From Allomyces macrogynus ATCC 38327 (Eukaryota; Blastocladiomycota; Blastocladiomycetes; Blastocladiales; Blastocladiaceae): a stretch of DNA of 64,000 nucleotides. The stretch covers positions 96,494 to 160,493 of the forward strand of contig GG745341.1 of the NCBI GenBank assembly GCA_000151295.1, given 5' to 3'. This document shows positions 5,560 to 52,630 of the stretch, piece by piece (the first letter of the stretch is position 1; the number at the start of each line of letters is the position of its first letter). The notes beneath the pieces were generated by a model. That model ran no database searches. It worked only from the letters and a program-made list of their open reading frames with translations, and had not been told where the DNA came from. A program made the translations under genes and the position numbers.

Positions 5560-7366
5560 AGTGCAGCTCGACATCGCATTCAACATTCTGTTTCGACGCA
5601 ACGATTACGCGCGTTCGCACGAAATGTCACGGCACGCATGTGCGCCGTCTATGTTCTACGAAATCTGGGACCCGATGGCCAAGGTCAAGGGCACTGACAC
5701 GCTCGTTTCGCTCGACGACTTGCTCAACAACACGACGGTCGATCTCTCGCGCGAGTCGCTCTCCCTGATACGGCAGCTCTTCGCAATCCCGAAGGTCTTT
5801 TCGAGTTGGTGCACAAGGCGGGCGGCGTAGCCGTGCGGAACACCCGATCGAAAAGACAATGGCCACGAGTCTCGCTTTGCCGACAATCGGAGCCCGGTTT
5901 TGGCGGAGCAAGTAAATGTGGCTGCTGTCTCGATTCGATTGTGCGAGGTCGTGGTTTGATCTATTGCCCGCTGTGACTGCTGCAAAGGACGAGCGCAACG
6001 GCGGCGACGAAAAGGAAAATTGTGGCAGCAAGTCTGGATTTGGTGCCAAGTCGGATGGGGTCAAGACGACTCAAGCAGCACCGCACCATGCCGACCACGC
6101 CAGGCTCCTCCTGGTCGCGGTTGGGCTTTCGCGGGTATCGCTCAAGAAGTTGTGCTTGCTGGCACCAAGCTGCTGGCCCCGTTCGCACCAACCATCTCGT
6201 CTGCAACAACGGGTATGTCATTGTGTTGCAATGGTCTACTGACATGGTCATCACTCGCCGTATTTGTCACTGATCATTCACACGCTCCGCCTTTTCTTTG
6301 TACACCAGCCCCAGACGTTATTCGTAAAGCACCTGTCGCTTTGTCGGGTGTGGCTGATACTTTCCCACCGCCCATTCACTCTGCTGTCTCACCCGCTGCA
6401 CCGGCCGTATTTCCGCGGCAACATACCAGGCGCTTGGTCCATCAACCACCCAAGAGCGATCAAGCGTGTGTTGCCACGTCTAGTTGGAGTGCAGCTGTTC
6501 CTGTCATCCGCGCATGCGACGCAAACGCCCAACATCTGGAGGGCTAGTTTTATCATCGCCCAACGTTTCAAGGGTGACTGTTGATTCGCACGTGCACCGT
6601 GACCGTCCGGCGTTTGGGGGACTGGATTCGTCATCGCCTAAGGTGTCCAGCGTGCTCGCCGATCCACGAAGTCGTGGCAAACGCCCGGCAAGGTTTGGAG
6701 GAGCTGCCTCGCCACCGCCCACGATTCAGCGTGCACCAACAATCAAGTAGACCTCGGCAACATTAGACGCGATTCCGTTTGTTGCGACACTGTCACTGTT
6801 CAAGGTGCTGCTCACGAGTCGCTGGGCGCTCACGCTTGAACATCACCTGCGCGAGCTTGGGCCAGTGCGCGACGTTTTGCTGGACGAGGCCAAAAAATGT
6901 GTCACGTTTACGATGTCACGAAGTATCCCCGAGTACGTGACCAAACCATCTCATGGGAATCGCTGTTAATGCATGGGCTGACCACTCACTCACTCTCTCT
7001 CTCTCGTGTTCTCTAGCCTCCTCCACCGTTTCACGCAATGTTCGCAACTTGTGGTGGGCGGGACCTTGTTTTCGGTTCGTATCCCCACGTTTATATCTTG
7101 TTATTTGTGCTGCTGGCTGACGTTTCGGTTCTTGGTGCTTTCCAGGTTCAGCCTCCGACCAGCTTGTGGTGGCAGCAGCTCCACCATGCCAAGCGCGCAC
7201 GGTTTTCGTGATTCTCACCATTGCAAGCGGCACCACATCGATGGAAATGGCGCAGATCTTGGCCAAGCACAACGTGTCTGGAGTCATTGACTTTGTGGGC
7301 CCAGTGCCATACTTGCCGGGCAAAACAAGCCATTATGTGCCAGTTTGCCGCACCGCACCCCATTGA
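5560..7366 (+). pseudogene. RSRR family copy 1, decayed
   Basis: Recognised only by comparison with better copies downstream. Around 5650-5860 the frame reads FYEIWDPMAKV..., then LDDLLNN..., matching the family N-terminal domain, but a 1-nt frame shift near 5795 separates it from its continuation ELVHKAGGVAV. At 6761-6940 a stretch with LRELGPVRDVLLDEAKKC corresponds to the first RRM-like domain. At 7200-7366 RTVFVILTIAS...GPVPYLPGKTS corresponds to the second. No RS-rich segment remains between them, and no continuous spliced frame can be built. This is the outermost left member of the array. Confidence 0.72.
6515..6740 (+). repeat. three imperfect tandem repeats of about 75 bp
   Basis: Three successive units translate (frame of 6484) as variants of RP.SGGL.LSSPNVS..., FGGLDSSSPKVS... 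and FGGAASPPPTIQ..., each preceded by a basic RP/KRP step. They sit where the RS domain would be in decayed copy 1. Confidence 0.5.
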
Positions 7367-7389
7367 GTCCGTGGGCGGCCGCTTACTTC

Positions 7390-9227
7390 AATTCGCGGCT
7401 CCGGCCGCTGCCGTCCGCTTCCGGCAATGCAGCGGACGCGACAGCTGCACTTCTACACGTCGAGATTTGTGACCCGGTCGTGGCAGTCGCGGCCACGAGC
7501 AAGCTCTAATCGCTCGTCCACCTGATGAGCGACCTGTCGATCAAGCTCACGCCTGAGTCGCTGGTGCTGACTCGCTCGCTCATCCTGCTACCCAACCACT
7601 TGGCCGGCCTCGTGCGTGATGCGGGCGCCGTCCCTGTTCTCGCTGATTCAGCACTCGCCCATCATCCGACACTCGCGGCTCGGCCAGTTGCCGATGCGGC
7701 TCCTGTTCTTGCCGCCGCGACGCCCTTCCACTTGCGCGACACGGCAGGAGCTCGCGAGCTGCTGATGGCAGCAAAGGAGCAGCCGCTGTTGTCCGTGGAA
7801 AGTGTTGATGCAGTGGAAAAGGCAGGCGCGGCGATCAAGTGCGAGGGTCCGACTGAAGATGAATCGTAACGTGCGCAACTCGCCACGTCTCTTGTTCCCG
7901 AATGCTCATGTGCTCGCCGTCACCTACCTGCTGCACCGGCCGCGCAACTCGAAGCGCTCGATGTAGCGACCGCTGTCCAAGAAGGAGATGTGGCGAGTGT
8001 TGCTGCTTTGGTCGAACACGATTATTTCGTCGAGCATGCTGTCTTGGTCAAGAACGATCTCTTGCCGTCGTCGAAGCCCAAAGCGATGGACCCACTTCGC
8101 AGCACCCACCCGTCTCCGACCGCGGCGCAACGCGCAGCCACGGCGCCCTCGAATCGACCGATTTGCTCTCAAGCCGACCGTGCGTCTGCTGCAGTTCTGC
8201 CCGACGACAGTACGGCTCGTGTTCGCGATCGCCCGAGCTATTGCGAGACGGGTTCTTTGCCGGCAACATGGGGCCCGTCTTCTTCTCTGCGCTCGCCTCC
8301 AAGCTCACCCATGTCTGGCGTCGGCAACATCAACACGGTCAAGTTCATCACGACGCTGACGCCGTTCAAGATGCCCGCCTCGAGCCTGTGGCGGTGTAAC
8401 CTCGAGTTCAACTTGCGCGAGATCAGGCCCGTGCTTGACGCGCGTCTGGACCGCTCCAATGGGCAAGTGCGGTTCACCATGTCGTGGTTGATTCGCAAGT
8501 ACGTTTTGCGACGTTTAATCTCAAGGCGCACGCTCATGCAAGGACTGACCGTCACTTCCCATCCGCGGCGATTAGTCGCGTCCCGCGTGTCGCGCGTCGC
8601 GCAGTTTGTGAAAAGTGGAATCTTGTTCTCGGTCTGCGATTCTTTTCCTTGCTTGCAAATGCCATGTGCCAAAAGCTAGCCTTAGACAACCATTTATCTT
8701 CGCTTCCAAATCCAGCCCACGCACGTGCACGACCAGCAACTTTTGACGGCACGCTCGCACTTCATTGCGCCGCCGCGCCTGATCTACCTACTCCTCAACC
8801 TTCCGCGCAACATCACGCTTGACCTGCTGCTCCCGATCCTGTTTGCGCGAGGTGTGCATGGTGTTCTTGACCTTGTCGGGCCCGTGCCGGGTCTCCCAGA
8901 CAAGACGAGCCAGTACGCTGTCATTTCTCTTGTTTATGTCAAGAAGCGAAGCACGTTGCTGACCGTTTGGGCGGCGGTCGATAGGATGGCCTACTTGAGC
9001 CTGAGCCCGACAAGCCGCAACGATGGTCGTGCCTTGGTTGATGCGTCGATTGATGGCCACCAGTTGCAGGTACGCTACTTCTCATTCCCGCGTATCGTCT
9101 CCACCCACTGACGAGCCTTGCTGCCATTTGATACTAGGTGTGCACGATCAGCGACCCGGCCAAGTTCTTTGCGTCGACGCACGACCTCCGTGCCGTGATT
9201 CAGCGCTACGTGGAGAGGCTCGATTGA
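7390..9227 (+). pseudogene. RSRR family copy 2, decayed (in-frame stop, no RS domain)
   Basis: Second left-edge member. The N-terminal domain at about 7396-7650 (EICDPVVAVAATSKL, then SLVHLMSDL...LVRDAGAVPV) is cut by an in-frame TAA at 7534-7536. The first RRM-like domain is at about 8311-8496. The second is at about 8770-8915 (LIYLLLNLP...GPVPGLPDKTSQY). It then continues through two introns with good signals to YLSLSPTSR...DGHQLQ and the tail VCTISDPAKFFASTHDL, ending at TGA 9225-9227. The C-terminal exons are in frame, so decay is concentrated in the N-terminal half. No arginine/serine stretch is present. Confidence 0.75.
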
Positions 9228-9714
9228 GGAGCACGGAACGCGGCGGGCCGCGACTTGGGTTTCTCGGCGAGTGAGGATGGCTTGGTCGTGATCGTTGTTC
9301 AGTCGCTTGTATTAAGAATCAACATTTGATGCTGTTGAGTGCTGACCAGCACAATGCATGGCTTGTGAGTGTGATCCATTTGCGTGCCACATGCGTTGAG
9401 CGTTGAGCGGCGGTATGAGGACGAGCGTGACAGCCACCTCCGCGTTCGACGACGACGAGGGCCGCATATGGGATATGGCGACGACACGCCCCGCAAGGAG
9501 CAAAGGCACGAGGACGAGCGCGACATCCGTTGTCGGAATGTCACGTCCCATGGAGGCCAAGTTCAAACCAAGAGCGAGAGCAACAAGTGCCTTGAAACGG
9601 CGCGAGCGATCCAGAAACTAGACGAGAACTTGCATTATGGAGCGGCATGATCGATAGGCAATACAGCTCTCTTGAGCATTCTACGCTCCTTTGCAACCTC
9701 TTCAAGTCGCAATC
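9228..9714. other. intergenic, convergent
   Basis: Lies between the 3' ends of copies 2 and 3. A short basic/acidic frame (RKEQRHEDERD) occurs but nothing supports a gene. Confidence 0.45.
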
Positions 9715-11623
9715 TCAAGCAATCCTCTCGTCCTCGTTCAAAAGCGGCGCAAGGTCCGGATCACCCAGGACGAGCGCCGTGCAGCAATCAAACACGTTCT
9801 TCGGGTCGGTAAAGAAGGCGCGCGGGTCCTCGATTCGGGAAAACTAGGTTATGTTGCCAAGAGCGTGGGCGCGTCAGCGAAATCCAAAGCGTGAAAGAAA
9901 GGGAAAAAAAGTGTCGGCAACAACGCACCCGCATCTTACACCCAAACGCGACCCACTCGTCACGGTGCCTGAGCTCTTTTGGAGCGCGGGGCGCATCAAA
10001 CGTCAAAAACATGTAGCGCAGCCGCGTCCCCGGCACCGGCCGCTGGCCACGATCCATATAGGGCCACAAGCCAAATGCCCTATAAATCTCGCGGTTGAGG
10101 TCGACCGAACTGGTCTCCGGGTACTGCGGCGGATTCACGGCCAGGTACACGACGAGTGGCGTCAAGTTCAGCACCGCGGGGGCAACCTGCTGCGAAAACG
10201 GGTCCAGGGGCTGCACGCGCACCGGCAGACCGCCAATTACGTAGCCGCTGCGGCGCAGCACCTGGACGGCAACCTTGCGCGGCATTGCGTCCGGCAACAG
10301 ATCGATCTGCAGTGTCGCCGCCCTGGATCCCTTGGCGCGCCGGATTTTGGCCGTTGAATGCAGCGACGTGAACAGCGACTCGAACCGCCGAGTATCGCCC
10401 GGGGTCTCGAATGGGGAGAGGTTGCTGAGCCGGAACTCGAACGTTGTCGGGGACGGCGACGATGAACGGGTTTGAGTGTCCGGAGCCACGGGCGCAGTAG
10501 GTCGCGACGGCGGGGCAGAAAATGACGGGTCGGTTCGCGGGCGGGCTGGGGACCGTGCAGGACGAGAAGTTGACGTACGGAATCGTGATTCCCGGCGTGG
10601 CCACTCCCGTTCACGAGAGCAGGACCGGGACTGGGAACGCGACCAAGACCGCGACGTGCGCATTCGCTGCTGGTGCGCTGGCACATAAGAGTTCTCGTCG
10701 CGCGCGACGGAATCCCTTGGGTGAGGCCGTTCCCGCGACCACGAACGTAACCGCGACCGCGATGGCGACCGTGACCAAGATTGCGTGAATGAGCGGTCGT
10801 TTCGCAGCGTGCGATCCACTTGTACCGATGTCCGGCCGCGGCTGCGCGACCGAGGGCGCGAAATTCGAGCCGATGAACGCGGTTCCAGACCCGTCCACCC
10901 GCCTGTTTGGTCTGCTTGGTCGTGAGTGCCGAGGTCAGGGCGGGGGAGAGCGAGAACACAATCAGGATGAGCCACACCGCCAAAACTAGGCGCCGTGCAG
11001 GCGCTATCTTTCCCTTGACCGCCACGCGGACGCTGCTGCTCCTGCTGCAATTGCGGCGTTGAATTCGCGGCGGGATCGGTGACGGTCAAACCGCCAGAGG
11101 GCGGCGGGCTCGCAGCGACGGGTGGGGCCAGCGCGCTGAGCAAAGCACCACCGCCGCTCTGCGCGAGCAGCATGTTCTTGATTTGCGCGGGGATATTGAC
11201 GTGCTGCTGGAACATATCACGCCCCTGCGGCGGCCGTGAAGCGTCGATCTGGCCGCCCAAGGGTGCAATCGCCGCAACAGATTGCACGGGGGCAGGTTGC
11301 ACGCCCAAGCCCATTGAAAGCGTCATGGTCGGTTCGAGCAGCTCAACGCGGAGGCCAGTGCCATCGCCAGCCTCAACAAAACGAATACGCAGGTCCATGA
11401 GCAACTATCGAGGGCCGGGAGAGTAGTGTGGTCGCGATGGTCGATCGTCAGGTTCGCTGGAGCGTGCACGACATTTGCACATGGACGTGGATGACGCTCA
11501 GAAACAAGAGAGCGCAGCCCTGATGTGACTCGGACGCACCTCTGGCTCAGCGAGAGCGGCGTGGCCTCGACGAGGAGGGCCCGTCGCAGCCCCAGCAGCT
11601 GGCAAAGTCGTATTACTCGACAT
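9715..11623 (-). CDS. RSRR family copy 3, intact
   Basis: Three exons (11623-11540, 11404-9929, 9843-9715), both introns GT...TAG, 562 residues. Exon 1 is short and low-complexity (MSSNTTLPAAGAATGPP), matching the TTLPGA motif of copies 7 and 8. The conserved N-terminal domain starts LLMDLRIRF. An RS domain is at about 208-328. The first RRM-like domain starts TFEFRLSNLS (about 346) and the second VVYLAVNPPQYP (about 443), with LRYMFLTFD as its RNP1-like strand and ending GCKMR at the splice. The tail reads FSRIEDPRAFF...LVLGDPDLAPLL. RS plus RRM-like domains suggest a nuclear RNA-binding role (inference); substrate and partners are unknown. Confidence 0.8.
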
Positions 11624-12163
11624 CGTCACGACAAGGCTCTCGATAACGACACTTCGGCACAAGTTGCAGGTTCAATGCGCGACTTGACGGGATGGGCCCG
11701 TGGCCGCAGTCAAAGCGAATGGTGGAGATCCGGATTACTGGCTGTCACTCGAGAAGGACTGGTCCCCAATCATGAGGGCTGCGCAGAGCTGTGTGCCTCA
11801 GGTTGCAGGCAGATGGGCGAGGGCAACTCGTAACGAATCCGCGACGAGTATGATGACGAGTCCGGCGCAGAGGCCGAAGTCGAAGCAGTGAGCTTTCTTC
11901 ATTTGGATGAAGTCGCCTCGAACGAACAGTTTGGTGATGTGGCGAGGCGTGACAGGCATCAACCACAAAGGCGACACAAGGAACAGAAGAAAAGGTGGGT
12001 TGCAATGTTCCTCTGGTTGAGTTGCGTGTGGCCACAGACTCAAAAAACAAAAGTCTGCCATGGTTCTTGAATCACAAATGCAAAAGACGATCCATTTCTG
12101 TCGCGAATGAGCGCTCTCCACCACATCTTAGCGCCGCCCGCACAGAACAAATAGCATGTGCAG
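11624..12163. other. intergenic
   Basis: Between the start of copy 3 and the 3' end of copy 4. Expected to hold the copy 3 promoter; no gene seen. Confidence 0.45.
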
Positions 12164-13907
12164 CTATTCCCGCTCGATCGCTTGGGCAAGCGCCGCAATT
12201 TTGCGGTCGAGGTCGGCGGGAGAGGCAAAGGCAGCCGCTGGGTCGACGATGCGCCGCAACTGGAAGCGCCGACACGGGCCCACCCCACAAACCAATCAGT
12301 GTCCGTGGTGAGAATCAGACACGTGCGAAAAGGAACGCAATCAAAACGGGCCATAACATACCTTCAACCGCCTTCCGCCGACAAAGCATCCTTCGAGAGC
12401 CATGACGTCCCGCTTGTTTGCGCTTGAGACGGTCAAAAAGCTATAGATTCTACAGTCCCAACGACGGATGCGCGCGTCAGCCATGGTATGATGAAAAACG
12501 GCGCCGTGCAATGCAACGTACCCAAGATCTGGCCGGCCAGGGACTTGCTTTTCGCAATGATCCACCCCAATGCTCATGCGTAGTTTCTCGATCGCTCGGA
12601 ACAGGAGCGAGAAGGAGGCGGGTGCATTGAACACAATGTATGTGGGGCGAGATGGCGGGCGTGGATGCAGATCGTCGGCCGGGTCGGCCGGGCGAAGCTA
12701 AAATGCCAATACAGAAGTGGAGAGTGAGCACCATGTTCACTTCGACCAGGTGCAAGCGAGTGCAATCCATACCGTGACTCGAAGGCCCCCAACGATGATA
12801 CCCGAATCGCTCAGCACATCGTGCACAGCTCTGGAGACACAACTCGATTAGCGTTCCTGACTTGCAAATGAACGGCACCAGCGCCGCGGGAAAATCTCAC
12901 GTTGGTGAGCGCGGCACCTAAAAACGAAGCTGACGTCGCGGCGCATCGACGACCAAATCGTGCAAGGCGCCAACGCGGTGGCTCAAGGCCTGCGCAAATC
13001 GGTGCTTCCAGGGCAACTTCTCGGCGACTGTGGCGGGCCCACCAGACAAGCCACCAATGAACTGCACGGCGTGCGCAGAGAACGCACGCTCAGAAGCATC
13101 TGGCAGGTTTGGCCGACGACTGCGCTCGGGTGATTGCGTGCAAGTAGGGTGTGGCAAACGCGATGCCCGCGATGAGCTGCGGGAGCGAGAGCGTGATCGA
13201 GAGGGTGGGAGCCGGCTCCGGGAGCGTGACGACCGGACCCGAGAGCGTGAAGAACGGGTGCGGGGGCGAGACTGGGTGCGCTCGGTGGAAGTTGCGCGTG
13301 GACAAGAGCGACATGACGATTGCGACCATGGGCGAGAGCGTGAACGCGAGCGAGGTCGGGAGTCCGGCCCAGTTCGAGAGTCCGGCCCAGTTCGACGCGC
13401 ATTCTTGGAGCGAGCAGCAGAATCAATCGAGCGGCTGCGCGTGGATTGCTCCCCGGGGCAATCACGGCTGCGCTCGCGATTGCGCTTTTCTTGTCGATGC
13501 CCATCATTATCGGCCAGTACCGATAAGGTTGGGTTTACTGCTGGTGGCAGTGCAGTGGCGGCCGCTTGGGAAGGAGGGCCAAGACCAGTACAACGCGACA
13601 TGGCGCCGCACACTGGTGCTCCAACAACATTGCGGTGCCACTGCGTCGAGGCGGGGACCGAAATGGACGATCTGCCCGCCGACAGTGCAAGGGAGTGCAG
13701 CCACGCGTCGGTGCCCATGAGGGCGGACAATAAGGCCACGGCCGGAGCAGGCAGAACTGTGGTCGGGTCAAGCAGGACATCAACCACAGCGCGTCCAGTG
13801 CCAGCGAATTGCGAAGGTATCGTTACAGTCGACTCGCAAATGACGACGGGTACAGCCGCTGGGTTGATGGCATGTGGCCGAAAGCGCACGGCCATGGTTA
13901 CAGCCAT
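12164..13907 (-). pseudogene. RSRR family copy 4, complete except for one amber codon
   Basis: Five exons join in frame (13907-12901, 12830-12773, 12697-12522, 12449-12362, 12259-12164). The N-terminal domain reads VTMAVRFRPH...TVTIPS and SVPASTQWHRN. A long RS domain follows, then a first RRM-like domain whose conserved tryptophan (FWVPR in copy 12) is replaced by TAG at 12920-12918. After it everything is in frame: LSDSGIIVGGLRV, RPTYIVFNAPAS, IYSFLTVSSANKRD, FVGGRRLK and the tail LRRIVDPAAAFASP ending in TAG. The start used is the first ATG of the exon; paralogues have a separate first exon that I could not find here. It could be a new pseudogene or a truncated N-domain/RS protein. Confidence 0.75.
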
Positions 13908-14689
13908 CCAAGAGTGGTCTGGCCCCAATGGCTGCTCCACTGGCAACATAACTACGCATGGAACAATCCCGGTTCCAGTTTGCGATGTGCTGGTTCACGA
14001 AAAGAGTTTGCAGCAAGTGCAGGTGTCGAGTTGAGCGCTTGTGGAATTTCTGGCGATGACAGATGTCTTGAAGCAGCATGACATGATTGGCCTTTACATC
14101 AACAAATGTGATCAATAGCCTGGAACAGCCTGGACCAGTCAAGATGGCGACAGCATGGCCACACCTCCGATTCAAATCTCTTTTCGGCCAAAAATCAAGA
14201 TAAACAGCTCTCCCCTTCTCTCTTTTCAACCCATCGCACTTTAGCGGGCATTGTGACGCGTCCTGCGCAATGCTCTATCTAGCGAGACCATGGCCGCGCT
14301 TGCGGTCTTTGGAACAGGGGCAATAAAGTCACATCCCTCGTTGCATGCAAAAGGAACCGCTCGAATGTGGCTGCACTCATGAGAACAGCAGTGACTGTGA
14401 CCTTGTTCATTGATGATCCTGTCGATGGACACGACTCATCCCAGTTGAGGCTCAGGCGCGGTTGCCTGCCAGAGGACGCAATACTCGTTCTATTGAATGT
14501 GGTTCCCAAACAGTTCACTCGCGTGCTTGGCCTCCTTGGCTGCGAATACGGCAAACAACATCATCGGTGTACCATGATGCTGGCCAAAACCGAAGGAGCC
14601 ACTGAAGTCAAGCAACCTCACAACAAAGTCATCAACAATGAAGGCCTTTGTAAGCCGCGCTCCTCCGTTGCACCGTCTGTGCGCCAACC
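13908..14689. other. intergenic; possible missing first exon of copy 4
   Basis: No supportable gene. The acceptor-like CCAG just upstream of copy 4 suggests an upstream exon somewhere here, but none is convincing. Confidence 0.35.
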
Positions 14690-16127
14690 TCACCCGCGAT
14701 CCTCGACGAGATCTCGCAGGTCTGGATCACTCAAAGCGAGCGCTTTGCAGCGTTCATCCATGTTTGCCGTGCTCGCAAAAAACAGTCTCTGGGTCCTCGA
14801 TGCGGGCAAACTATAGCCACCGTGAGGAGCCAAAGCTCATTTTAATGAGAAGAGGTGGCATGGAATATCCACCCTAACTTTTCATCCAAACGCAACCAAC
14901 TCGTCCATCTGCTTCAGCTCGCCCGGGGTCCCTGGTGCCACGAACGGCGCAAACATATATCGCAGCTGCGACCCAGCACTGGCCGCCGGCCACGGTCCAC
15001 ATACGGCCACGCACCAATCGCCTTGATGATCTTGCGGTTGAGGTCGTCCGAAGTGGTTTCCGGGAACGGCGGCGGATTCACGACAAGTAGAAGACGTGTG
15101 GGAGAATGCCGCGCACAACAGACGCGACCGACCGTCAAAACGGGTCAATGGGCTCGACGCGCACTGGCAGGCCGCCAATCACAAGCCGTTGCGGCGCAGC
15201 ACGTGAATGGCAATCACGCGTGGCACGGCGCCCAGCAACAGTTTGTTACGCAAGGTCGCAGTCTGGGACCCACGGGCATGCCAGATTTTGGGACTTGCGG
15301 AAAGATTCGAAAACAACGACTCAAAGCGTCCCACATCGCTTGAGCTCCTGAATAATGGAAGGTTGCTGAACACGAACTCAAGCGCCGCCGGAGATCGGGT
15401 CGATGGTGGAGGAGCGTCCAGGGCAACGCGACTGCTTGACGGGAGACGTGCATTTCGAGCGGACGAGCGAGATTCAGAACCTTTCCACCCGTCCATTTGA
15501 TTGGCTTGGTCGCGAGAGCGTGAGCGCGGATGGCTGGAGCGAGAATGCAAACGATGGCCACGAGAGCACAAAGGCCTCGTGCGGGAGCGAGATCGTGAGC
15601 GACGTGACGAGCGCAAAAGGGAGCGTGAGCGGGAGCGGGACTGGTGCCAACCCGCAATACTGGGATCGTCGACCAAGCAGCTGCACGTTGAATCATCCAC
15701 ACCAAGGCGACCCCAAGCGCGCTCACTGCTGCGTGTGCGCCGTCCTCTCCCTGTCGGCCAGTGACGGGTTCAGCGCTGCTGGAGGTTGCGGCTCGGTAGC
15801 GGAGGACGGAGCACCACGATGCAAGAATGCCATTCCACCAGCCGGTGCTTCAAACCGCACTGTCGACGCAGGAACCGAAATGGGCGACCCACCCGTCGCC
15901 TGCACAAGGGCCTGCAGTCGAGGGTCGACCCCTATCATGACGCTCAGAAGGGCCAAAGGCGGTGCCGGCAGAGAGGTTGTCGGATCAAAGGGCGCATCGG
16001 CCACAGCGCGACTGGGCGCGGCTGAGTCCGGCGGGATCTTTACGGTGGGTTCACAAACGTAAATAGGCATGACAGTCGCCGAGTTGGTGGCTTGTGGGTG
16101 GAAGCGCACGGCCATGGTCACCGTCAT
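14690..16127 (-). pseudogene. RSRR family copy 5, frameshifted, mixed ancestry
   Basis: N-terminal domain from ATG 16127 (VTMAVRFHPQ...VCEPTVKIPP) closely follows copy 4. An RS stretch at about 15500-15680 lies in another frame. The first RRM-like domain (LEFVFSNLPLF...RFESLFSNLS) closely follows copy 3. The second domain is broken again (VVNPPPFPETTSDDLNRKI and LRYMFAPFVAPGTP are in different frames). The tail is also split: RIEDPETVF in one frame, ALALSDPDLRDLVEDRG in another. At least three frame changes rule out a normal product. The copy 4-like front joined to a copy 3-like back suggests exchange between neighbours. Confidence 0.75.
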
Positions 16128-17093
16128 TCGATGCTCTGGCGACATGATCGTTTCTTGAAGACTGCAGCAAATCAACTTGATGTCGCGAGATGCTGGGTCA
16201 AGACCAGGTGCAGAACATGTCCGCCCACACAATGGAGTGCCGCCGTTCGAAACAGCATACACATGGTGGACGCGGCACATTTGTTTCGAACTGCGGGCTT
16301 TCAGGGGCGAAACTTGAACGCATAAGCAGTCCGAGCGGCGCAGTTGGCTTTATTTTCCATATTGTTGCCGCTTCATGCTTCATTCAGCAAGCAACCACAA
16401 AGCATCTGCAACCTGTGCGGCAACGCCCATGGATTTGTCAAGCTTCATGTGCACGCCAGTCACGAGGAAATCGCTCGAGTACGATCCCGTTGTAATTTCT
16501 GAAGTTGAAAGGTGCCTTGCTGCGGACAACCATCAAAAGCGCTGAACAATGTCATGACGAAAAGCAACGAGTGCAAAGAGAGTGCTTCCGATTCGCAATG
16601 AGGTCGCCTTCAAGGCTCAAAACAATTAGCGTGGGTGTGCGCGAAGGGAATGAGCGAAGCAAGCGACGTTCTAAATTGTCCTTCATCAACGTAGCTCCCA
16701 TCGTGGTCGCCAGGGTGTGGACCTGTCAACGTAATGGCCGTGAGACCCGCCAAAGCAAAGAGCGCGAATATGTGCCGATGGACAGATTCTGCCCGATCTG
16801 GTTAAGCCGGAGCATCCACAAGCCCAAGCATCTCAGCTTGGCGAGGTGTAGCGTTTGCCACGCGTGCGCTTGTCCAGGTAACATCAAACCGAGGGCATTC
16901 AGTCAACTGCGTGTGGGCAATCATCGTCAAGGGCGTTCCGTCATGAATGGGCACAGTACGGCCAGCCTCGACAGATCATCTGGCAGAATAGCATTTGATG
17001 CCTTTGTCGGCAGAGGAAGCAACGGGAAACAACCAACTTTAGCAATTCAGATCACATGCAAACAACCCAACATGCATTTCTTTGCGTGCCCCT
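16128..17093. other. intergenic
   Basis: Nearly 1 kb with no gene or family fragment I can support; short open frames only. Confidence 0.4.
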
Positions 17094-40408: not shown

Positions 40409-40519
40409 TTGCAGCGAGTTGCGGTCACTTTATGGTCGGTCAGATGTGTGGAGCGCCAGGTCGCAGCCAGGGGCAGCAGCATGACCGATGCGATACTTCA
40501 TGATTCGTGATCACAATCA

Positions 40520-42757: not shown

Positions 42758-43918
42758 GGTGCACGGGCGTGAGTTGGGACTTGCGGTCGAACGGCGGGCC
42801 AGAAATGACCGAGGTAAGCGTTGAGAGCAGGCGTTGCTGGGTCTGTCCCCTGAGATCCATGGCGTCGCGCGAGTATATATGGACACCGACGAGCAGGCCG
42901 CGCCGAAATGATGGTTATCTTGATCGGAACCGCTGGATGCTGGTGCTGCTGGACGCCGCCGCTGGTGCACGAGTCAGAAGCGGTCGGCGCCGAGGACGTC
43001 GAGCCGTCGGTTGCTGTTGTTGAGGTGGAGCACGTTACCGCGTCTTGTCGGGCAGAAAAGACAGCAAGAGAGCAGAGCAAATTATGCTCCGCACAGGCAT
43101 TCTCTATCCACGGTTCATCCACGCGCCCCTCGGAACAACAGAGAGGCGCTGCGCTTTGGAATGAAACGAAAAGTGGCGTGCACTTTCGAGTTCAGCCGCA
43201 GCAGCTGGCTGCCACCCGCATGCAAGCTGCGCCCAGACTTTGCGCATTCTTTCGAGCCCCTTTTGAAAAACGGCGATTTCAGCCCAGTTCTTTTGTGTCC
43301 AAGTTGGTTCCAGAAAAAGGATGCACGTCACATTCTCCAGGAGAGGGTCGTGCTCCAACTGCCCATGCAGCGTGCAGGGGCGGGTTTGAAGGCCAAGCAG
43401 CGCCAAGCAGCATCGCCACGGCAGGGCACGAAGACACCAGCCGCAACGCCCGCCGCCATGGATATCTGATCCAGCGCTGATCCGGCTCGACGGCAGGCGC
43501 GCGCATCCTTGCATACAATTTGGCATGGGAGCCGGGACATGGTCGAGGGCTCGATGGGATGTGTGTGCGGTAGGGAGTATGGGCGATGTCCACGTGGTCA
43601 CTGTGTCGCGGTTGTCGCCACGGCCGTACTGTTGCCGGCCGGTGGACAAGAAAGCTGCCTTGGACCGGAACGTGCGACAAGGGTCAGGAGATTCATGTCC
43701 CGCGCGCCGCGTGCACTCGGTCATTTGCTCGCGCTCCCGCTACCGCTCAAAGCCTGCTCACTCTGACTCAAGGGTACTCGCTTTCCACCACAAGTTTGGA
43801 TGATGCTAAAACAGGTTTTTCGACATGCTCTGAAAAACTAGAGAATAAGCAGCCTGAGGCAAGGCGAGGAACCGAACACGAGTTTAAACCATGTTGAGCA
43901 TAATTCGAAACTCGTCCA
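42758..43918. other. intergenic, 1.2 kb
   Basis: Upstream of the ZIP gene and downstream of copy 16. No gene or family fragment supported. Confidence 0.45.
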
Positions 43919-45986
43919 TTACGACGCGGCATTCTCCAGCGCGTTGGCAGCGGCAAGAATCTCCTTCACAATAATATCGCCGGCCGCAAACTTCTCCACC
44001 GGGATGTCGACCCGACAAACCTATCAAACACCAAGCAGCTCGTGGGTGAGAACCTGGGGCTGGGGGGGGGGGGGGGGGGGTGGTCACGGTGGAAGTGGAG
44101 GTGGAAGTGGAGAGTGGCAATACCAACACGCAGCACCTTCCCCTGGAACAGCACGCCGTCCAGGTCCTCGCCCGACATGAATCTCGAATGAATGACGGTC
44201 ACGAAGCCGGAAATATGACGATGCGGCCGTGCGGATGCGTGAGAAACCATTCAGGAAGCGAACACAAACCGGTCATTCCACACACCTCGAAGGCCGACCT
44301 CGCTCGTACATACTGCACAAGTCGAGCATGACGTGAATGCGGCGCATGCTCACCTCCTTCATCAGCTTGTAGATCGTGCTGGCGCTGGGCGCGTTATACA
44401 GGACGTGGACTTGCCGTGGTGGGGGCGTATTGGTGGGCATCCATTGAGAATCGGCAAGCTCAAACTGCAAGCCCACCGAGAAAGAACACACACACGAAAT
44501 CACTTCAGTTTTCTCTCGAGTTCATGGCGAAACAACCACGCCGAGAGCCCGTACCTTGCACAAGACGTGCCCAATGACCTGGTGCGACTCGGCGAGGGCG
44601 TCGCGAATCGTCTGCGGATGCTTTGGGATCCAAAACCGCATCCTTGCCTGCTTGCCGTCGAACTCAACGCACCGCGGCTTCACCGTGACCACAAACCGCT
44701 GCTGCCACCAGGCCTCGTCAGCGTGAAGGGTCCATTCTTGGGGCCCGATGAGATGCGCCATAGACTCGACATGCTTGGCAACCACGACCGGCTCGTGAGC
44801 CAGAATGGGTTGGGGATGTCCTTGTTGAGGCTGGGCTTGGCGCTGGAATGCAGCCGTGACGGTATCGGGGGCTGGGGTCGTGCACGCGGACGCGATTGCG
44901 ATGGTGGTGGGAGTCATGGGCGGTGCCGCGAACGCAAACGCGAACGTGAACGCGACCGACACCAATCTGTACCCGAGAACGCGACTTGCGGCTTAGTTCA
45001 GGGCTCCGCGAGCATTGTCGCGAGCGCGATCTTGAACTACGCTGCAAAGAATGGCGCGCAAGCTCGAATGCTGGGTCTCCTGGTGCCAATGGCGTGTGTT
45101 GCGCTGAGAGTTGGAGCGTGTCCTGAAGCGAGACGTTGCGCTCGAGCGCACACTCGAACGAGAGCTCGAGCGTGTGCGAGAAAGAGAGCTCGAACGCGAT
45201 CGGAATCGAGCTTGCGCATGTCCAAGAAAGTGAGGTCGAGGGTGCGCGAGTACGTGAGCTAGAGCGTGGACGCAAATGCGCGCGCCAATGCAAATGATTG
45301 TTCGAGGTCGCGCGACCGTCCACTGCGTCGCGCACGGAATCGGTTGCTGTTTGGTAGTGATGCGCTGAATCAACGGCAGTTGGTTCCTGAACTGGAGGAC
45401 TTGGAAAAAGAGGTCGTCCGCGCTGAAAACAAACCAAAACTGGTGTTTAACTTCGGACAACGGGCCGCCAGAGTTGGAGGGAAACGATGATGGCGTACCC
45501 GCGGTAGAACCATGCCGTTTCAGGCAAACTGGCACAGCGAGCGCCCCAGATGCAGGGGCGAGGTCTCGCAGCTGGAGCGGGATGGCGCCAAGAGTATGGA
45601 TCAGAGCGAAAGCCGGTGGTGAAAGTGTCGCGGCAACGAGGGAAGCGTTGCTGAGCGGCAACAGTCCCGTGGCAAAGTGGAGAAGCATTGGAGAGAACAC
45701 TTGAATTGACTTGACGGAGAATGGTGCTGTTGCCGGCGTAAATCGGACGCCAATGGCAATTGACAACTGCAATGCCGTGCAACAACAATGTCAGGCCTGG
45801 TCTTCATGGACTGAGTTCGCACAGACGGAGGCGAGGCATAAACCACGAGCCAATATTTACATGATGTGAAGCGGTGCAGACGGCTGGGACATCATGATGA
45901 AGATGAGCGGTCGAGTCACGGCCAACGGCCCGTTGGAGCGGCGGGCCTTCACCAGGCGACGTGCAGGTGCCAGTACTTGCCGCCAT
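43919..45986 (-). pseudogene. RSRR family copy 16, probably broken (RS frame shifts, lost acceptor)
   Basis: Possible exon 1 from ATG 45986 (MAASTGTCTSPG). N-terminal domain LSIAIGVRFTPATAP...LSPPAFALIHTLGAIPL. The RS region is spread over two reading frames (FRSRSSSLSRTRSSSRSS, then SRSPELSRKSRSR), and the first RRM-like domain (CVEFDGKQARMRFWIPKHP) is in a third. The following exons read FELADSQWMPTN...VHVLYNAPSAS, then FVTVIHSRFMSGEDLDG...GKVLR, but no AG acceptor exists before FVTVIHS. The tail VCRVDIPVEKFAAGD (44020-43919) has a good acceptor. A 19-G run lies in the last intron. Damage in splicing and frame favours a pseudogene. Confidence 0.62.
44062..44080 (+). repeat. G homopolymer, 19 nt
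   Basis: Uninterrupted run of G, in the last intron of copy 16. Length is likely approximate because such runs assemble poorly. Confidence 0.9.
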
Positions 45987-46177
45987 ATCGGCAGAAGTTG
46001 CTACTGCTGTCTTCGTATTGTCGGCCGTGGGCGGTAAAGACTGCACCGCCGCTCCCGCTCCAGCACCTGCAGAAAATTATCCGCCCGCACCTCGAGAACG
46101 GCTATGGCCCAGGAATAGCCTTGTCTGTCCGTCCAGCACCCGTCGACTCGACGAGCGAGCAACTTCATTCACCAGAA

Positions 46178-47725
46178 ATGACCTTGACCATGGCCGTGCG
46201 AGTACACCCGCTGTCCGCCAGAGCCGTGTCTGGCGCTCCCGTCGCAATATTCGAGCCTACTGTGCTGCTGCCGTCAAGCTCGCCGCCTATCAAGGCTCGC
46301 TCGGTTATGGACGTGCTCCTGGACCCAACTGTTGTGATTCCTCCCCCAGGTCTCGCACTGTTGCGTGCCTTGGCTGGCGTTAATGCGAAGCTCTACGCGA
46401 CGACTCAAGCGACTGGCGCAACACCCGTTCATGGGTCCAGCGCCGCGTCTGCTGCTGCTTTGATGTTCATGGCGCCACCTGCCGACCCCATGATTAGTTC
46501 TGCGGTTCCAGTCGTGCCGAATCCTCGTGTCGAGGTCAAGAGCCATCCAACTCCTCTTACGCAACACGGCCCTTCACCACAGTCATCTCGAACAACCTCT
46601 CCACCGGATCGCGACCGAGCGCGCGACCACAAGCGTCGACGAGACCAGCGCAACCGCGACGCTCGTCACCGGCGCTCATCGACCGATTCGCGCCGCGCTT
46701 CACGCTCCACCCATCCGCCCTCGCGCGCTTGTCTCCGGACCAACGAGACAATACATCAAGGAATCGTGGCCGAGCGCGCAGCCGCAGCCCCGCTCGTCAT
46801 TCCCAACCCCATGACGGAGAAACAGAGGTGCGCCGGCCTCCACTCCCACGGCTCCCAACGCGGCCGTCGGGGATGGTGCAGTTTGTGGGCCCTCGGCAGC
46901 AACGTGCAAAACGCTCCGGGTGGGTAATGTGGTTCATGACGGCTGTCAACAAGGCGTTTAATGTTACGGACGTGGCCCTGGATCAAGATCGACGCGTTGT
47001 CACGTTTGGCGTCCCTCGGTCCGCGTCCTTGTTCGTCCAGACCAAATGGATGATCGACGGGCGGACACTGACTGGTGCATGTTCACGTCGATTAGGGCGG
47101 TGCGTCAGGTCCTGGCCGAGTCGGGCATGGTCGTGGACAGTGTTCGGGTCGATGTCTGTACTTGCCAATTGCTTGACCTCACTGCCGCCAGTTTCCTCCA
47201 CTTCCTGACCATTCGGCATTTGGTACATGTTTACCTAGTTGGATCCCGCGGATCCGGCCGACGACCTTCGCTCACACCCGCGGCCGCGAGACGTGTATGT
47301 GGCCTTCAACGTCCCGCATTTTCGTGCCGCGTGGAAAATGGGGCTGTGGTTCGGCTATTCGCACGCGGGCAGGCGCGTGCCCGGTCGACCGGATCTCGGG
47401 TTTGTTCTGATGTTGTGTGTTCTGGTCATTGCGCTTCCAGAAATGATGGATGCAGGGTCGTATAGGCGTTACACAAGTCTCACGGTCGCGAGCAAGAACT
47501 CTGTCGACATCCACAACTTGGAGCGCGTGTCGCTCACAGCTGGTGCCCCCGTCGTGGCCGTCGGTATTATTGTCTGTTAATCCTCTTTTCCTCTTCCTGT
47601 CGGCTCCAGCGTTATTGACACTGCGCATGCGGCTGCGGTTGCGACGGATCAAGGATCAGTTTGCGGCGCTTTCGTCTCAACAGAGCCTCGAGCTCGAAAT
47701 CCAGTCGCTCGCGCGAACGCTTTGA
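46178..47725 (+). pseudogene. RSRR family copy 17, one frame shift in the RS domain
   Basis: From ATG 46178: TLTMAVRVHPLSARA...IFEPTVLLPS...LLDPTVVIPPPGLALLRAL, then RDRARDHKRRRDQRNRDARH. Near 46730 the family pattern moves to another frame (SRNRGRARSRSPARHS), and everything after is consistent: VVTFGVPR spliced to AVRQVLAESGMVVDSVRVD, then LDPADPADDLRSH...VYVAFNVPHFRAAW, then RYTSLTVASKNSVD and a tail RRIKDQFAALSSQQ ending at TGA 47723-47725. All other junction phases match copy 14, so one indel, or a sequencing error in a repetitive stretch, is all that separates it from coding. Its start faces copy 16. Confidence 0.62.
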
Positions 47726-47945
47726 GAAGGAAAAGAGGCGCCTGTGTCATTGTTGTTCCAAACACGACCGAACCCATTTGCATCTACGTGCCGCACAGCG
47801 ACGCGTCCGGGCTGTTAGAGGCACAAGAAGCATCTTCTTGATTTGAGTCCTCGCTGAACGAGACAGCGTTGCGAAGACAAGCAATTTTCCATTAATTTCA
47901 TCCACAGAACACGGCAAATCACTCTTGTCGATCTTCTCCACCCCC

Positions 47946-49905
47946 TCACCACGTCCATGCGTGCGACTCGATCGCCTTCTTGAGTTCCCGGTCGTCGCCC
48001 GCAGCAAACAGCCGCGCCGCGTCATACAGGCGCACAACCTATGACACGGCAGTATCAGTGGTTCTCTGTCATTGGTCCACGGCGGCGCAACATTCCACAT
48101 ACCCGTAGCCTGTGCCCGCGAAACACGGTCCCATCCAGTGCCTCGCCGCGTGTATGGCTCGATGCAAAGACCGACATGAACGCGTACCAGCACCGCGGCG
48201 TCACGGCCATGTGCTTGCTGCTTGGAATATCCACGAACCCGTTGATGTCGAGCAAATCGAGTTTGCGTGCCAGGTCGCGCACGGCGTTGCCGGGCACGTC
48301 ACGGAAGAAAATCAGGTAGATGGAGACGGGCTCTGTGGGCACGGCGGGCACGGCAGGGTGGGGAACCAGCCGCGCGTCGGGGCGGTGGACGAGCTCAAAC
48401 TACAAGCGTGGCGCGGCATATCAGGAGGGTGCGGGGCGAGCTCGCGCGGTGCCCATCGAGTCGGGTCACGTACATGCAGCCTCACATGGCCCATGACGAT
48501 TCCAGACTCGAGCTCAATGCCCGAGACCCTATTGGGACCATTCCTCAAGGATCAGTCGCGTGTCCGACCGCATTCACACACCAAGAAACCAGCAAAACGC
48601 ACCCATCATCCTCGCGCATCCACATGCGAATCACGCGCGCCTTTTCGTCCATCACAAAGTACCGCGGCGAGTACCGCGCAATGAACCGGTGCACCCACAT
48701 CGGATCGACCATATTGCGAATCGCCGCCGCCGGGCCCATTGCCACGACCCGCATTTCCGTCAAGTACTGCCGCGCCCTCGATGAGGGCTTGCCCGCTGCG
48801 ATCGGGGGTTTGGTCGAGATCACGACTGCGTCATCCCCGCCGCCACGGGTGCGAGCTGCGCGTGGGGATCGCGACCGTCCACCCCGCAGCGACGACGGGC
48901 GGTAGGACCGCGAGGGAGACTGTGACCGGGTGGACCGCCGCGTGGGGAACAGCGCGCGACTGATGGTTCGGGAGCGATTGCATTCGCGCGGCGAAAGGAG
49001 CGGAACGGCGTCCGCGGGACGAGTCGGTGCGTCGCTTGCGCGCCGGCCGGGATCGCGATCACCGGGTGGAGACGATTGCGGCGGTGTGGCCGGTGCTGTT
49101 GTCGCCGGCGAGGGCAGCACCGGTGCGGTCGGGCCAATGCTAGGGGTGTGGAGGTCGAGCGCGTTATGATCGAGTGAGGAACCGTCGTCACCATTCATAC
49201 CGAAAAAAGGAGCGCACAACGTACGCGTGCATTACGTCGGATACCCATTCCGGCTCCTTGACAATGACCGGGACGGCGCCTACGCTCTGGACCACGCGCG
49301 ACAAGTGGTCGGGCACCTGCGAGAGCATCCACATCAGCCGACCCACTTTGTCGGATACGTCGCAGACGCTCGTCGCGAGCCAATCCGAAAGTGCTTGCGG
49401 TTCCGCGCCCTGAGGCACGACGAGCGGCTCCAAGACGCTCACGGCGCTCGCGGGAGATCCGGGCACGATTTGGAGGCCGAACAGGACCGTGATCTGGTGG
49501 GAAAAGAGACAGTATCGGATCAGTGCGTGGTTCGTCGTGGTTCGCACACGTCCCCAAACGCTGACGACGACAAACATTGTCCGAATTTGCGTCGATCCGC
49601 GGCGTCCAGTGCTCCCCACGGCTGATCAGAAGATTCGGGTGGATTTGGCCGGATTCGGCGGTCATGGGACGTGACAACCAGCGTAGAGCTCCCGCGCGCT
49701 GTTGCAGTTGCACTTCATCCGGCGACGTCCACGGCGCGACGCTGTCGCTGGTCGATCGTGGTGGGGGGGAAACAATGGGGTCGTGCACCGCGATCGACGA
49801 GGACTTGGTCGTCCAGGATGGTGCTGGCGCGGTCATCGTCGGTCCATTGGTCGGCGAAAAGGGCGTGGGATGAGCTCCATGAACGTTGGCAGCCGAGAAT
49901 GTCAT
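47946..49905 (-). CDS. RSRR family copy 18, intact, divergent
   Basis: Six exons (49905-49714, 49493-49225, 49139-48603, 48528-48474, 48399-48103, 48038-47946), 480 residues, phases consistent. Exon 1 MTFSAANVHGAHPTPF. N-terminal domain ITVLFGLQIVPGSP...VLEPLVVP...VVQSVGAVPVIV. An intron between this domain and the RS region (phase 2) is shared with copy 11. A short RS domain (STRSQSPSRSYRPSS, GGRSRSPR). First RRM-like domain YFVMDEKARVIRMWMRED then VSGIELESGIVMGHVRLH. Second FELVHRPDARLVPHP, VSIYLIFFRDVPG, WYAFMSVFASS, FRGHRLR. Tail VVRLYDAARLFAAGDD. The most diverged intact member. Confidence 0.8.
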
Positions 49906-50244
49906 GGATGGAGGCCACTTCGTCACACTTGCTGGTGGTGCAGGTGTTTGCTGTTGCAGTCGAGACCGAGCGGTGAGTGAAGCATTGCGGGGAGCGGCGC
50001 CGTGGTGTTCAAGTATCGCTCTGCCAGAAAAAAGGGACTGAACCAGCTCACCAAGTTATGTCCTCTACTCGCCAAGGATCCTTGTCCCCAAGCACCGTCT
50101 TGGCACGCGCTCGTTCAAGAAAAACAGGGATGCATCGTTCAACGGAATGACATCGTTGCGCGCCGACGACCGCGTCGACCGCGCCTTGGCGGCCGCCGCT
50201 GGAGCTCGCCAAAGCCTCACCAACGCGGCCACGACGACCGCCTC
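49906..50244. other. intergenic
   Basis: Short gap between copy 18 and copy 19 on the same strand; no gene seen. Confidence 0.5.
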
Positions 50245-52630
50245 TTAGTCGACTTCGCGCGCCATCCGGTCCACCAAATCCACCACGTGCCGCGGCGAGC
50301 TGAAAAATTGGTCCGGGTCCTCAATGCGCACGACCTGCAGCGAAAGAAACGGACAGTCGTGGTGAGCATAACGAGCCAGCCAGATCACGACAAGCCAGTC
50401 AATCCACAACGCACCCTGATCGGCCGCCCCTGCACGTACACCCCATCAAGTCGCTCCGCAGCATACTGCGACCGCCGCAGCAACGTAATGAACCCGTAGC
50501 CCGTGTTATTGCGCGGGCTCACGCGCGAGTGCAGGTCGAGGTCGGCAAAGACGCCGCTCGCCTTCATGAGCTGAAAGAGCTCTTTGAACGCGGCGCGTAG
50601 CGGGATGTTGAAGAGTGCATAGCATGCACGCGGTTCCCGGGGTAGGATCTCGGCGGGGGGCATTTCGGCCGGGTCGGCGGGCTCAAACTGAGTGCGTTAG
50701 GCGCAAGAGTCTTACGTAGTCAGAAAGAGCGCATAGCGGAGGGCGCGGAATTGGGCCAACGCACTTTGAAGTAGAGCTGGCCGATAATTATCCCCGACGT
50801 GGCAATGGTTGCTGGGACAACACTACGCACGTTCGAGAGCGAGTTAGCTCCACGTCGTCGCCAGTCGGTCTCGTCGACAAACGCAGACAACATACTCTGG
50901 CGATGCCGGCAGCGAAAAATGCAACACGTTCGCGTCGGCGTCGTACTCCAAGTCGGACGGCGTGCCCACATCGCGCAACGCATGCGACAGCCGATCAAAC
51001 CATTGCGGTTTTGTCGGGCGCTGACCCTTTGGGTACATGTGCGCGCGGAACCGCACTTTGGGGAAGGGACGGTAGGTGAGACTGCGCGGCACGGAATCTT
51101 GAGCAGTAGCAGTAGTATCGCGAGCTCGAAGAGAGCCATGAGCGCTGCGACTGCGAGGGGAAGTCGCGCGACTACGCGACCGCGACCGCGAATCAGATCG
51201 ACGTTTCTGCACGCGGTCGCGCGACCGCGAACGATGTCGGTCGGACGAGTTCTTGCGCCGGCGCCGACTCGGGCTGCGGCTGCGGTCACGGTCACGGTTC
51301 GCGCGCGGTTGAGGAGCAGGCTCGTCGACTGCCGTGTCCGATTCAGCAGAAGGCTGCGACTGCAGTTGCAGTTGCGGCTGCGGCTGTAACTGCATCCGCA
51401 TCTGCATTGCCGCGAGCTGCTGGTGGTAGTACTGCGCATGCACGGCCGCGGGTGCCGTTGTCAACGCCTGCGGGGTCCATGCTGTCGACGCTTGCGGCGT
51501 CCATGCCGTCAACACCGTCTGCACAGGCGGGGCCGCCAGCGACACTGTATTCATTGCCGGCACAGCAGCGGCAAGAGGTTGCGCCGGCACGTTAGCAGCG
51601 TGAGACGGCGCAAGCATTTCGACCAGAGGACCCGAACTCTTGCCAAACCTTTCGTGATGAGCGAACCCATTCAATTGCGCAAGCAGATCCTGCACACTGG
51701 CCTCGCTGGTCGTAGAGTCCACCGTTTCCACGGCCGCCGGCGCCGCTGCTGCCAGCGCAGTTGGCTCGCTGTGCAAATGGCCCGGCATGGTCGGGTTCGG
51801 GAGCGCCACCGACGGTGCTGGGCTCATGGGCGACGTCGTCGACGCGGCAACTGCCGACGAGAGTTGCGCGAGCCACGCGGGCACGTCCGTCGCGGGAGTA
51901 GGAGCAGCGGGAAGGGGCGTCGTCACCGCAGCTTGAGCACCCGGCATTGCCGCATCGTGCACATCAAGTCTGTTCGAATGCGCTGTTGCGGAAGCGCCCA
52001 GGAGATCGCGGTACCAGTGGCTCTGGGCGGGGATCGTGACAGGCTGCAACCCCGACTGGAACACGAAACTATTCAACTGCGTCGTGATCGAGGCAAGCGA
52101 GCGGAAGAGGACCAGGTCGGCCATGGGCAGCGGCAACTTCATGTCGACCAGCGCGTCCAGAATCGATTGGCCTGTTGACGACAGCGGAGATGTGCCGCGC
52201 AGCACGACGGGTTCGCATACTTGGACGGCGCCGTTGGCCGTCGGCATGCAGCGCACGGCAAACAAGATCGTCCACTAGAAAACGAGCGAGCAGGACCGAC
52301 CGGTTGGTAAACAACCGGAGTCCAAAATGGCGCTCCACAATGCATCGACCACCTCAATACGCCTTATCCCATCTTCCGCGCTGGCCCAACATGCTCGAAT
52401 AGATGTACCTGCTGCTCGTTGCCGCTCGGGAGCATTATTGAGCCATAACCGTGGCCAGGTGCAGCAGTCAGCGAGGCGCCCTCAACAGGAGCATGATAGC
52501 CGGCGGGGATGGTACTGGCTGCTGGCGTCCACGGAATCGGTACTGGTGCTGGCACTGGCGGCTGCTGCAGCTGTTCCGCATACTGGCTTGGCACCATGGC
52601 CGAGCTGGTGGGGAGGCGCCAGTGTTGCAT
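50245..52630 (-). CDS. RSRR family copy 19, intact
   Basis: Exons 52630-52409, 52274-50896, 50822-50765, 50687-50415 and 50334-50245; 673 residues. Exon 1 MQHWRLPTSSAMVPSQYAEQ; the same frame is open to another ATG at 52909, which would add 93 residues. N-terminal domain WTILFAVRCMPTANG...VCEPVVL...IPAQSHWYRDL. A long Ala/Pro/Gln-rich linker follows, then an RS domain (SRSPSRRRRKNSSDRHRSRS). First RRM-like domain LEYDADANVLHFSLPAS, then TSGIIIGQLYFK. Second FEPADPAEMPPAE, ACYALFNIPLRAAFKELF, YGFITLLRRS, VYVQGRPIR. Tail VVRIEDPDQFFSSPRHV. It is the last member on the right of the array. Confidence 0.82.

What the first reader, a model, noticed from the sequence alone, without database searches (positions are those of the whole stretch)
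5560..52630. A 47-kb array of a previously unrecognised RS-domain / twin RRM-like gene family
Nineteen related units on both strands share one layout: variable exon 1, conserved N-terminal domain, RS domain, two RRM-like alpha/beta domains (with YGFLTV-type and [VI]Y[VL].LN.P strands) and a helical tail with [RK][IL].DP..FF. Eight have complete spliced frames, two lack only one codon, the rest are decayed. I do not know a named family with this combination. Sequential birth and death of SR-like proteins in one locus suggests strong diversifying or copy-number selection, for example on RNA processing or on control of a genetic parasite (speculative).
Basis: partly seen in the sequence, partly recalled or inferred. 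Interest (0 to 1): 0.92.

Follow-up and report, generated by a model that had tools for sequence, protein, structure and literature searches.

The report
Decaying array of SR-like RNA-binding genes
The fungus Allomyces carries many old, mostly broken copies of one RNA-binding gene side by side, each built from a front domain of unknown kind, an arginine/serine stretch and two RNA-recognition domains, and related to a conserved single gene elsewhere in its genome.

Summary
The array is real. Both core domains are predicted as RRM folds. The front domain is predicted with fair confidence and found no match in Pfam or the PDB.

Three corrections. (1) The family is not confined to this locus: 56 chained units lie in six clusters. 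(2) It has a likely founder, a conserved pair on C30/C70 (dN/dS 0.06-0.17 in three main exons) with the same domain order and phase-0 intron; one of its RRMs passes Pfam's cut-off. (3) Diversifying or copy-number selection is not supported: the closest paralogs are about as old as the homeolog split or older, dN/dS is mostly below 1, and the sister contig lacks 12 of 19 units. u10 is under clear purifying selection.

Just past the array, 2.7 kb has lost almost every CpG to TpG/CpA on one homeolog only; its counterpart carries the family's front domain.

The parts
5633..7360 (+). u1, decayed: NTD and R2 only
7510..9227 (+). u2, decayed: NTD, R2, tail
9715..11398 (-). u3, subfamily A; 271 of 273 domain codons in a two-exon model
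   Evidence: tail intron
12164..13949 (-). u4, NTD, R1, R2, tail; broken under strict splice rules (98 of 229), 210 of 229 with six exons under relaxed rules
14696..16115 (-). u5, NTD, R1, R2, tail; broken
17097..17794 (-). u6, R1, R2, tail; no NTD found; broken
18838..20476 (-). u7, subfamily A, R1/R2/tail open; a stop separates the NTD
21458..23333 (-). u8 = AMAG_08002 (558 aa), exons 23160-23333, 21694-23073, 21458-21580
   Evidence: protein; exact splicing; its printed window coordinates are one base high
23948..25863 (-). u9, subfamily A; 269 of 269 domain codons with relaxed splice rules
   Evidence: C64 homeolog has a stop
26493..28151 (+). u10 = AMAG_08004 (496 aa), exons 26493-26588, 26662-27747, 27843-28151; homeolog AMAG_07103, dN/dS 0.18 in the main exon
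   Evidence: one search prints window coordinates one base high
28525..30624 (-). u11, broken; contains the 100-N gap 29531-29630
29763..29867 (+). isolated tail fragment, opposite strand, beside the N gap
31837..33496 (+). u12, subfamily B; 210 of 210 domain codons, two exons; tail not detected
35391..36979 (-). u13, NTD, R1, R2; broken
37696..39926 (-). u14, subfamily B, long RS; 166-172 of 214 domain codons; C64 homeolog 65% identical with stops
41126..41419 (-). u15, R2 remnant
44122..45760 (-). u16, NTD and R2; broken
46178..47580 (+). u17, subfamily B; 181 of 206 domain codons with relaxed rules
48055..49577 (-). u18, subfamily B; 142 of 142 domain codons, four exons; R1 and tail not detected by profile
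50245..52262 (-). u19, subfamily B; 168 of 170 domain codons, four exons incl. tail; R1 not detected by profile
5227..23125 (.). segment with u1-u7 and the body of u8, absent from sister contig C64 (16 bp between the flanking matches); C64 keeps u8 exon 1
43587..52945 (.). segment with u16-u19; about 400 bp in its place on C64
53230..55950 (.). CpG-depleted tract (14 CpG, 187.5 expected); C64 counterpart gene carries the family NTD

Best explanation
This is an old, founder-related family of SR-like RNA-binding proteins, restricted to Allomyces as far as searched, arranged NTD - RS domain - RRM1 - RRM2 - short helical tail. SHOWN by computation: shared domain order, predicted RRM folds for both core domains, an RNP1-type aromatic pair in 19 of 31 R2 sequences, common descent with a conserved pair on C30/C70 (same domain order, same phase-0 intron, founder R2 a Pfam RRM), six clusters, purifying selection on u10 and on the founder, and absence of 12 of 19 units from the sister contig. 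INFERRED: the proteins are nuclear; the RS domain is phosphorylated and recruits them to splicing or mRNA-processing complexes; R2, possibly with R1, binds pre-mRNA; the NTD is a docking or dimerisation module. A few copies (u10, u8, AMAG_07989, perhaps u3, u9, u12, u18, u19) work as diverged partners or competitors of the founder, and the rest are relics. Duplication mostly predates or matches the homeolog split; since then the arrays have mainly shrunk by deletion, stop/frame decay and, at this array's edge, CpG-directed mutation.
Confidence: 0.6

Rival explanations
1. Mostly a graveyard: the founder pair, AMAG_07989, u8 and u10 do the work, and the array as such has no function.
For: 12 of 19 units are incomplete even under relaxed splice rules. 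The sister contig lacks 12 of 19 units and its u9 and u14 counterparts carry stops or split frames. The fungus lives with both states.
Against: Seven units keep long spliced frames although R1-R2 dS between window paralogs is 0.93-1.77, and dN/dS in the 9 measurable of 10 subfamily-A R1-R2 pairs is 0.28-0.56, unlikely without past constraint.
Confidence: 0.3
2. One reading: copy number and sequence are driven by conflict with a genetic parasite or by another arms race.
For: Lineage-restricted as far as searched, multi-cluster, strong difference between homeologous arrays; CpG-directed mutation at the array edge points to some genome-defence-like process nearby.
Against: dN/dS exceeds 1 only in 3 of 21 NTD pairs, all cross-subfamily with u14 (u7 1.04, u8 1.20, u9 1.22), and in no measurable R1-R2 or tail pair; no recent duplicates were reported in the window; the sister contig lacks copies rather than having more.
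Confidence: 0.07
3. The similarity is an artefact of RS low-complexity sequence; the units are unrelated.
For: RS sequence probably crowded one database search (25 of 31 rows are not Allomyces, many of them SR proteins; rows not tested one by one).
Against: NTD, R1, R2 and tail profiles lie outside the RS stretch and vanish on shuffling; exact intron sharing.
Confidence: 0.01
4. A mobile element carrying an RS/RRM gene spread the copies.
For: Copies on six contigs, on both strands of C62 and C64.
Against: C62/C64 and C22/C61 clusters are syntenic, introns are kept, and no repeat of 200 bp or more was reported except u7/u8. Transposon genes in the clusters were not searched for.
Confidence: 0.02

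Closest known systems
C30/C70 gene pair of the same genome (L014, L011)
   Same: NTD, RS, R1, R2, tail in the same order; a phase-0 intron directly before the 'xxR[IL]xDP' tail start in both founder copies and in u3, u4, u7, u8, u19
   Different: Has an RRM-like stretch between NTD and RS and another after the tail (both weak against RRM profiles); one homeologous pair, strongly constrained
PUF60/FIR, U2AF65, Hsh49 (SF3B4): tandem-RRM splicing factors
   Same: Best Foldseek rows for the AMAG_08002 model; U2AF65 also has an N-terminal RS domain (recalled)
   Different: No NTD in those proteins (recalled); AMAG_08002 lacks a third RRM after R2 and has a ~40-aa tail
Canonical SR proteins (SRSF family)
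   Same: RS repeats plus RRMs
   Different: RS precedes the RRMs here; the extra NTD; no Pfam RRM hit in array members
PTB / hnRNP L-type RRMs (RRM_5)
   Same: Founder R2 matches PTBP2 RRMs in the PDB (E 0.03) and RRM_5 weakly (19.6 bits)
   Different: Below the RRM_5 cut-off of 27; PTB-type proteins have no such RS domain (recalled)
RBMY on the mammalian Y chromosome (analogy only)
   Same: Multicopy RRM family with a serine/arginine-rich region (passages of PMC5816366); relation to the conserved RBMX is recalled
   Different: No homology beyond RRM; sex-linked there, not known to be so here

Membership tests
RRM superfamily | beta-alpha-beta-beta-alpha-beta fold | tested here: met
   predicted for R1 and R2 of AMAG_08002
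RRM superfamily | match to Pfam RRM_1 above its cut-off | tested here: not met
   0 of 9 array ORFs and 0 of 7 proteins; the founder's R2 does pass (24.8 vs 20.7 bits)
RRM superfamily | RNP1 aromatic pair in beta-3 | tested here: met
   R2: 19 of 31 sequences show [YFH]-x-[FY] incl. founder YAF; 3 show one aromatic only, 2 matched a wrong strand, 7 gave no pattern match. R1 of array subfamily A and of the founder lacks it (by eye)
Canonical SR proteins | RS-dipeptide-rich domain | tested here: met
   10-19 RS/SR dipeptides in the best 60 residues of the seven complete units
Canonical SR proteins | RRM(s) N-terminal to the RS domain | tested here: not met
   order is NTD-RS-R1-R2 in the full-length rows and
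Canonical SR proteins | nuclear, SR-kinase-phosphorylated, splicing activity | not testable with these tools
   -
U2AF65/RBM39/PUF60 group | third C-terminal UHM-type RRM | tested here: not met
   only a ~40-aa tail with short helices follows R2 in AMAG_08002; other members judged by sequence only
PTB/hnRNP L (RRM_5) | RRM_5 match above cut-off | tested here: not met
   founder R2 19.6 bits vs 27
Known fold for the NTD | clear match in the PDB | tested here: inconclusive
Family of the C30/C70 founder | same domain order, profile homology, same intron | tested here: met

The most novel reading that the evidence does not exclude
Allomyces amplified a constrained RS/RRM gene into six arrays of SR-like proteins headed by a domain of a fold not yet solved. 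After genome doubling the arrays were pruned not only by deletion but also by a CpG-directed, RIP-like mutator that nearly saturated a family-related gene on one homeolog. If so, an early-diverging fungus, from a group described as having largely replaced 5mC by 6mA, has (or had) a duplicate-silencing cytosine-methylation/deamination system.
Probability: 0.35. Interest if true: 0.8.

Novelty: new variant of a known kind. Interest (0 to 1): 0.58.

Why it matters
It adds an SR-like family with an orphan domain, restricted to Allomyces as far as searched, to a poorly studied fungal phylum, and gives a natural comparison (two homeologous arrays and a constrained founder) in which amplification and loss of RNA-binding genes can be dated and tested. 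The adjacent CpG-stripped tract makes a direct test of RIP-like mutation in Blastocladiomycota possible.

Tried and rejected
RS artefact: rejected by controls outside the RS stretch. NTD as a divergent RRM: rejected (hhalign 0.2%). SmaI, XPC-binding, CDC27, TFIIA, ALMT and DUF2457 Pfam hits were below cut-off and are taken as chance. STING and other Foldseek rows for the NTD have E of 0.2 or worse and are taken as chance. Domain trees were short, weakly supported for deep order and rooted by me on the founder; only the u10 and u14 homeolog pairings are relied on. u15 was not used as a neutral control: its homeolog match was read on the antisense strand; a second antisense piece over u14's 5' side (dN/dS 1.33) is left out for the same reason. 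Rfam: 0 matches. Papers: no mention of the family in the listings, nor of the four AMAG locus tags tried; passages with the word Allomyces in PMC8476143 and PMC2997006 did not bear on it. Absence outside Allomyces is limited: two searches scored only the 7,984 and 7,988 best word-sharing candidates, one search scored 1,614, the 25 non-Allomyces rows were judged RS-driven without testing each, and the founder itself was never searched (cap reached).
Full report
OBSERVATION. Profiles of four parts, the N-terminal domain (NTD), R1, R2 and tail, were seeded from three or four database proteins, extended over the window and over further genome stretches. Three shuffles and one reversal of the same ORFs gave one hit at E < 0.05, against 140 real ones.

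WHERE. The window is C62:96494-160493 of a 54-Mb genome in 75 contigs. C62 is 1,321,136 bases long, the same length as the contig of AMAG_08002, so the genome is taken to be Allomyces macrogynus ATCC 38327 (inference). That strain is described as polyploid (passage of PMC11878562). Other genes in the window are a FOL1-type folate enzyme, an SBF transporter, a ZIP transporter inside the array, a DnaJ-like frame (below Pfam's cut-off) and a ThiF gene.

GENE MODELS. Two units match database proteins exactly: u8 = AMAG_08002 and u10 = AMAG_08004, each with two introns.

FOUNDER. C30:25968-29762 and its homeolog on C70 encode NTD, an RRM-like stretch, RS, R1, R2, tail, then another RRM-like stretch. 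Profiles built without it hit it in the same order: NTD 0.008, R1 2e-4, R2 3e-7, tail 3e-5 for C30 (E for 5,000 sequences). Its R2 passes Pfam RRM_1. A phase-0 intron sits at the same place, directly before the tail, in both founder copies and in u3, u4, u7, u8 and u19 (u8 from the database model, the others from my models). Founder dN/dS is 0.106, 0.06 and 0.17 in three main exons; three shorter matched pieces, some not in its frame, gave 0.24-0.59.

OTHER CLUSTERS. Single-protein searches of the genome and fetched stretches show clusters on C64, C22, C61, C26 and C32. Chained units: C62 20, C22 13, C64 9, C26 5, C61 5, C32 4, total 56, fragments included; C26 and C32 were read only in part. 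C62/C64 and C22/C61 are syntenic; the C26/C32 pairing is inferred from similarity. AMAG_07989 (802 aa) lies upstream of the window on C62 and has an A. javanicus relative, 71% identical over 88% of R1-R2, whose 112,223-bp contig has the same length as that of the A. javanicus relative of u7/u8; that they share one contig is inferred.

SELECTION AND HISTORY. u10 and its C64 homeolog: dN/dS 0.18 in the main exon, 0.23 in the last and 0.30 in the first-exon stretch (Fisher p 2e-26 and 2e-5 for the first two), like FOL1 (0.10, 0.175), SBF (0.20) and ZIP (0.08 in its main block, 0.47 in the other). u14 sense pieces range 0.12-0.69 and u9 pieces 0.19-0.57; the u12 NTD piece gives 0.65. dS is 0.41-0.62 for FOL1, SBF and ZIP homeologs and 0.39-0.47 for the founder's main exons. 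The closest window paralogs, u7/u8, have dS 0.93 in R1-R2, 0.51 in the NTD and 0.67 in the tail, so they are about as old or older. Paralog dN/dS is 0.28-0.56 in the 9 measurable of 10 R1-R2 pairs, below 0.75 in 17 of 21 NTD pairs and above 1 in 3 of 21, all across subfamilies with u14. On C64 the stretch matching window 5227-23125 (u1-u8) is missing with 16 bp between the flanking matches, and C64 keeps only u8's first exon, which points to deletion on C64. Window 43587-52945 (u16-u19) is replaced by about 400 bp; its polarity is less certain. So the array is old and shrinking, not visibly diversifying.

CpG TRACT. Window 53230-55950 has 14 CpG where 187.5 are expected; observed/expected is 0.86-1.49 in the other kilobase blocks. 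C64's aligned counterpart has 1.29. There, 95 C64 CpGs are CA and 92 TG on C62, of roughly 210, and 2 are kept; two control blocks keep 101 and 135, most of theirs. C-to-T at CpG is 0.46 per strand against 0.07-0.10 in four controls; CpA is also raised in this block (0.21 vs 0.03-0.08) though not in the neighbouring part block (0.05). Identity outside CpG is 0.775-0.788, slightly below the controls (0.798-0.869), so the change is mainly but not purely CpG. That C62 is the changed side is inferred from the genome's usual CpG level. The C64 counterpart gene carries a clear NTD (E 2.5e-14 for 100 sequences) and no detected RRM. Two further CpG-poor tracts were seen in the stretches examined; one (C64:84501-86901) overlaps a family unit. 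With three tracts no association can be claimed. The genome has C5 cytosine methyltransferase matches over the Pfam cut-off on 9 contigs (16 matches). A review passage describes near-complete replacement of 5mC by 6mA in early-diverging fungi, including Blastocladiomycota (PMC13297926), and a chytrid study reports no RIP in Chytridiomycota (passages of PMC6572847).

MECHANISM. Most likely these are nuclear SR-like RNA-binding proteins: R2 (with R1) contacts RNA, the RS domain gives phosphorylation-dependent recruitment, and the NTD gives protein contacts. Only folds, homology and constraint are supported by computation; the rest is inferred from the domain types.

Noticed in passing
window 53230-55950; C64:126193-129419: Sharply bounded CpG-stripped tract on one homeolog only: 187 of roughly 210 aligned C64 CpGs are CA/TG on C62 and 2 are kept; RIP-like or methylation-driven mutation. 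Its C64 counterpart carries the family NTD.
   Followed up: partly
L020/L021 (C64:84501-86901) and L035 (C61:171101-173001): Two further CpG-poor tracts (observed/expected 0.2 and 0.29-0.37); the C64 one overlaps a family unit at 84334-84899.
   Followed up: no
G000 C65, C53, C9, C25, C23, C19, C63, C70, C30: 16 matches to C5 cytosine DNA methyltransferase (PF00145) on nine contigs, all over the cut-off, in a phylum described as mainly using 6mA.
   Followed up: no
window 61265-61741: Homeolog block with dS only 0.05 (93.7% identity) between adjacent pieces of 0.30 and 0.35: possible recent gene conversion between homeologs.
   Followed up: no
P0033 (A. javanicus GGF32_009010): Only 5 RS/SR dipeptides against 48 in AMAG_07989, although the stretches around the RS region align well: frameshifted model or real loss of the RS domain.
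   Followed up: no
C64:128856-129716 and 126468-128822, minus strand: Long open frames with the family NTD but no detected RRM and little RS: the NTD may occur outside the NTD-RS-RRM layout.
   Followed up: partly
window 271-2994: One open frame with FolB, HPPK and pterin-binding domains (tri-functional folate enzyme).
   Followed up: no
window 29531-29630: A 100-N gap lies inside u11, next to an opposite-strand tail fragment, so local order there may be misassembled.
   Followed up: no
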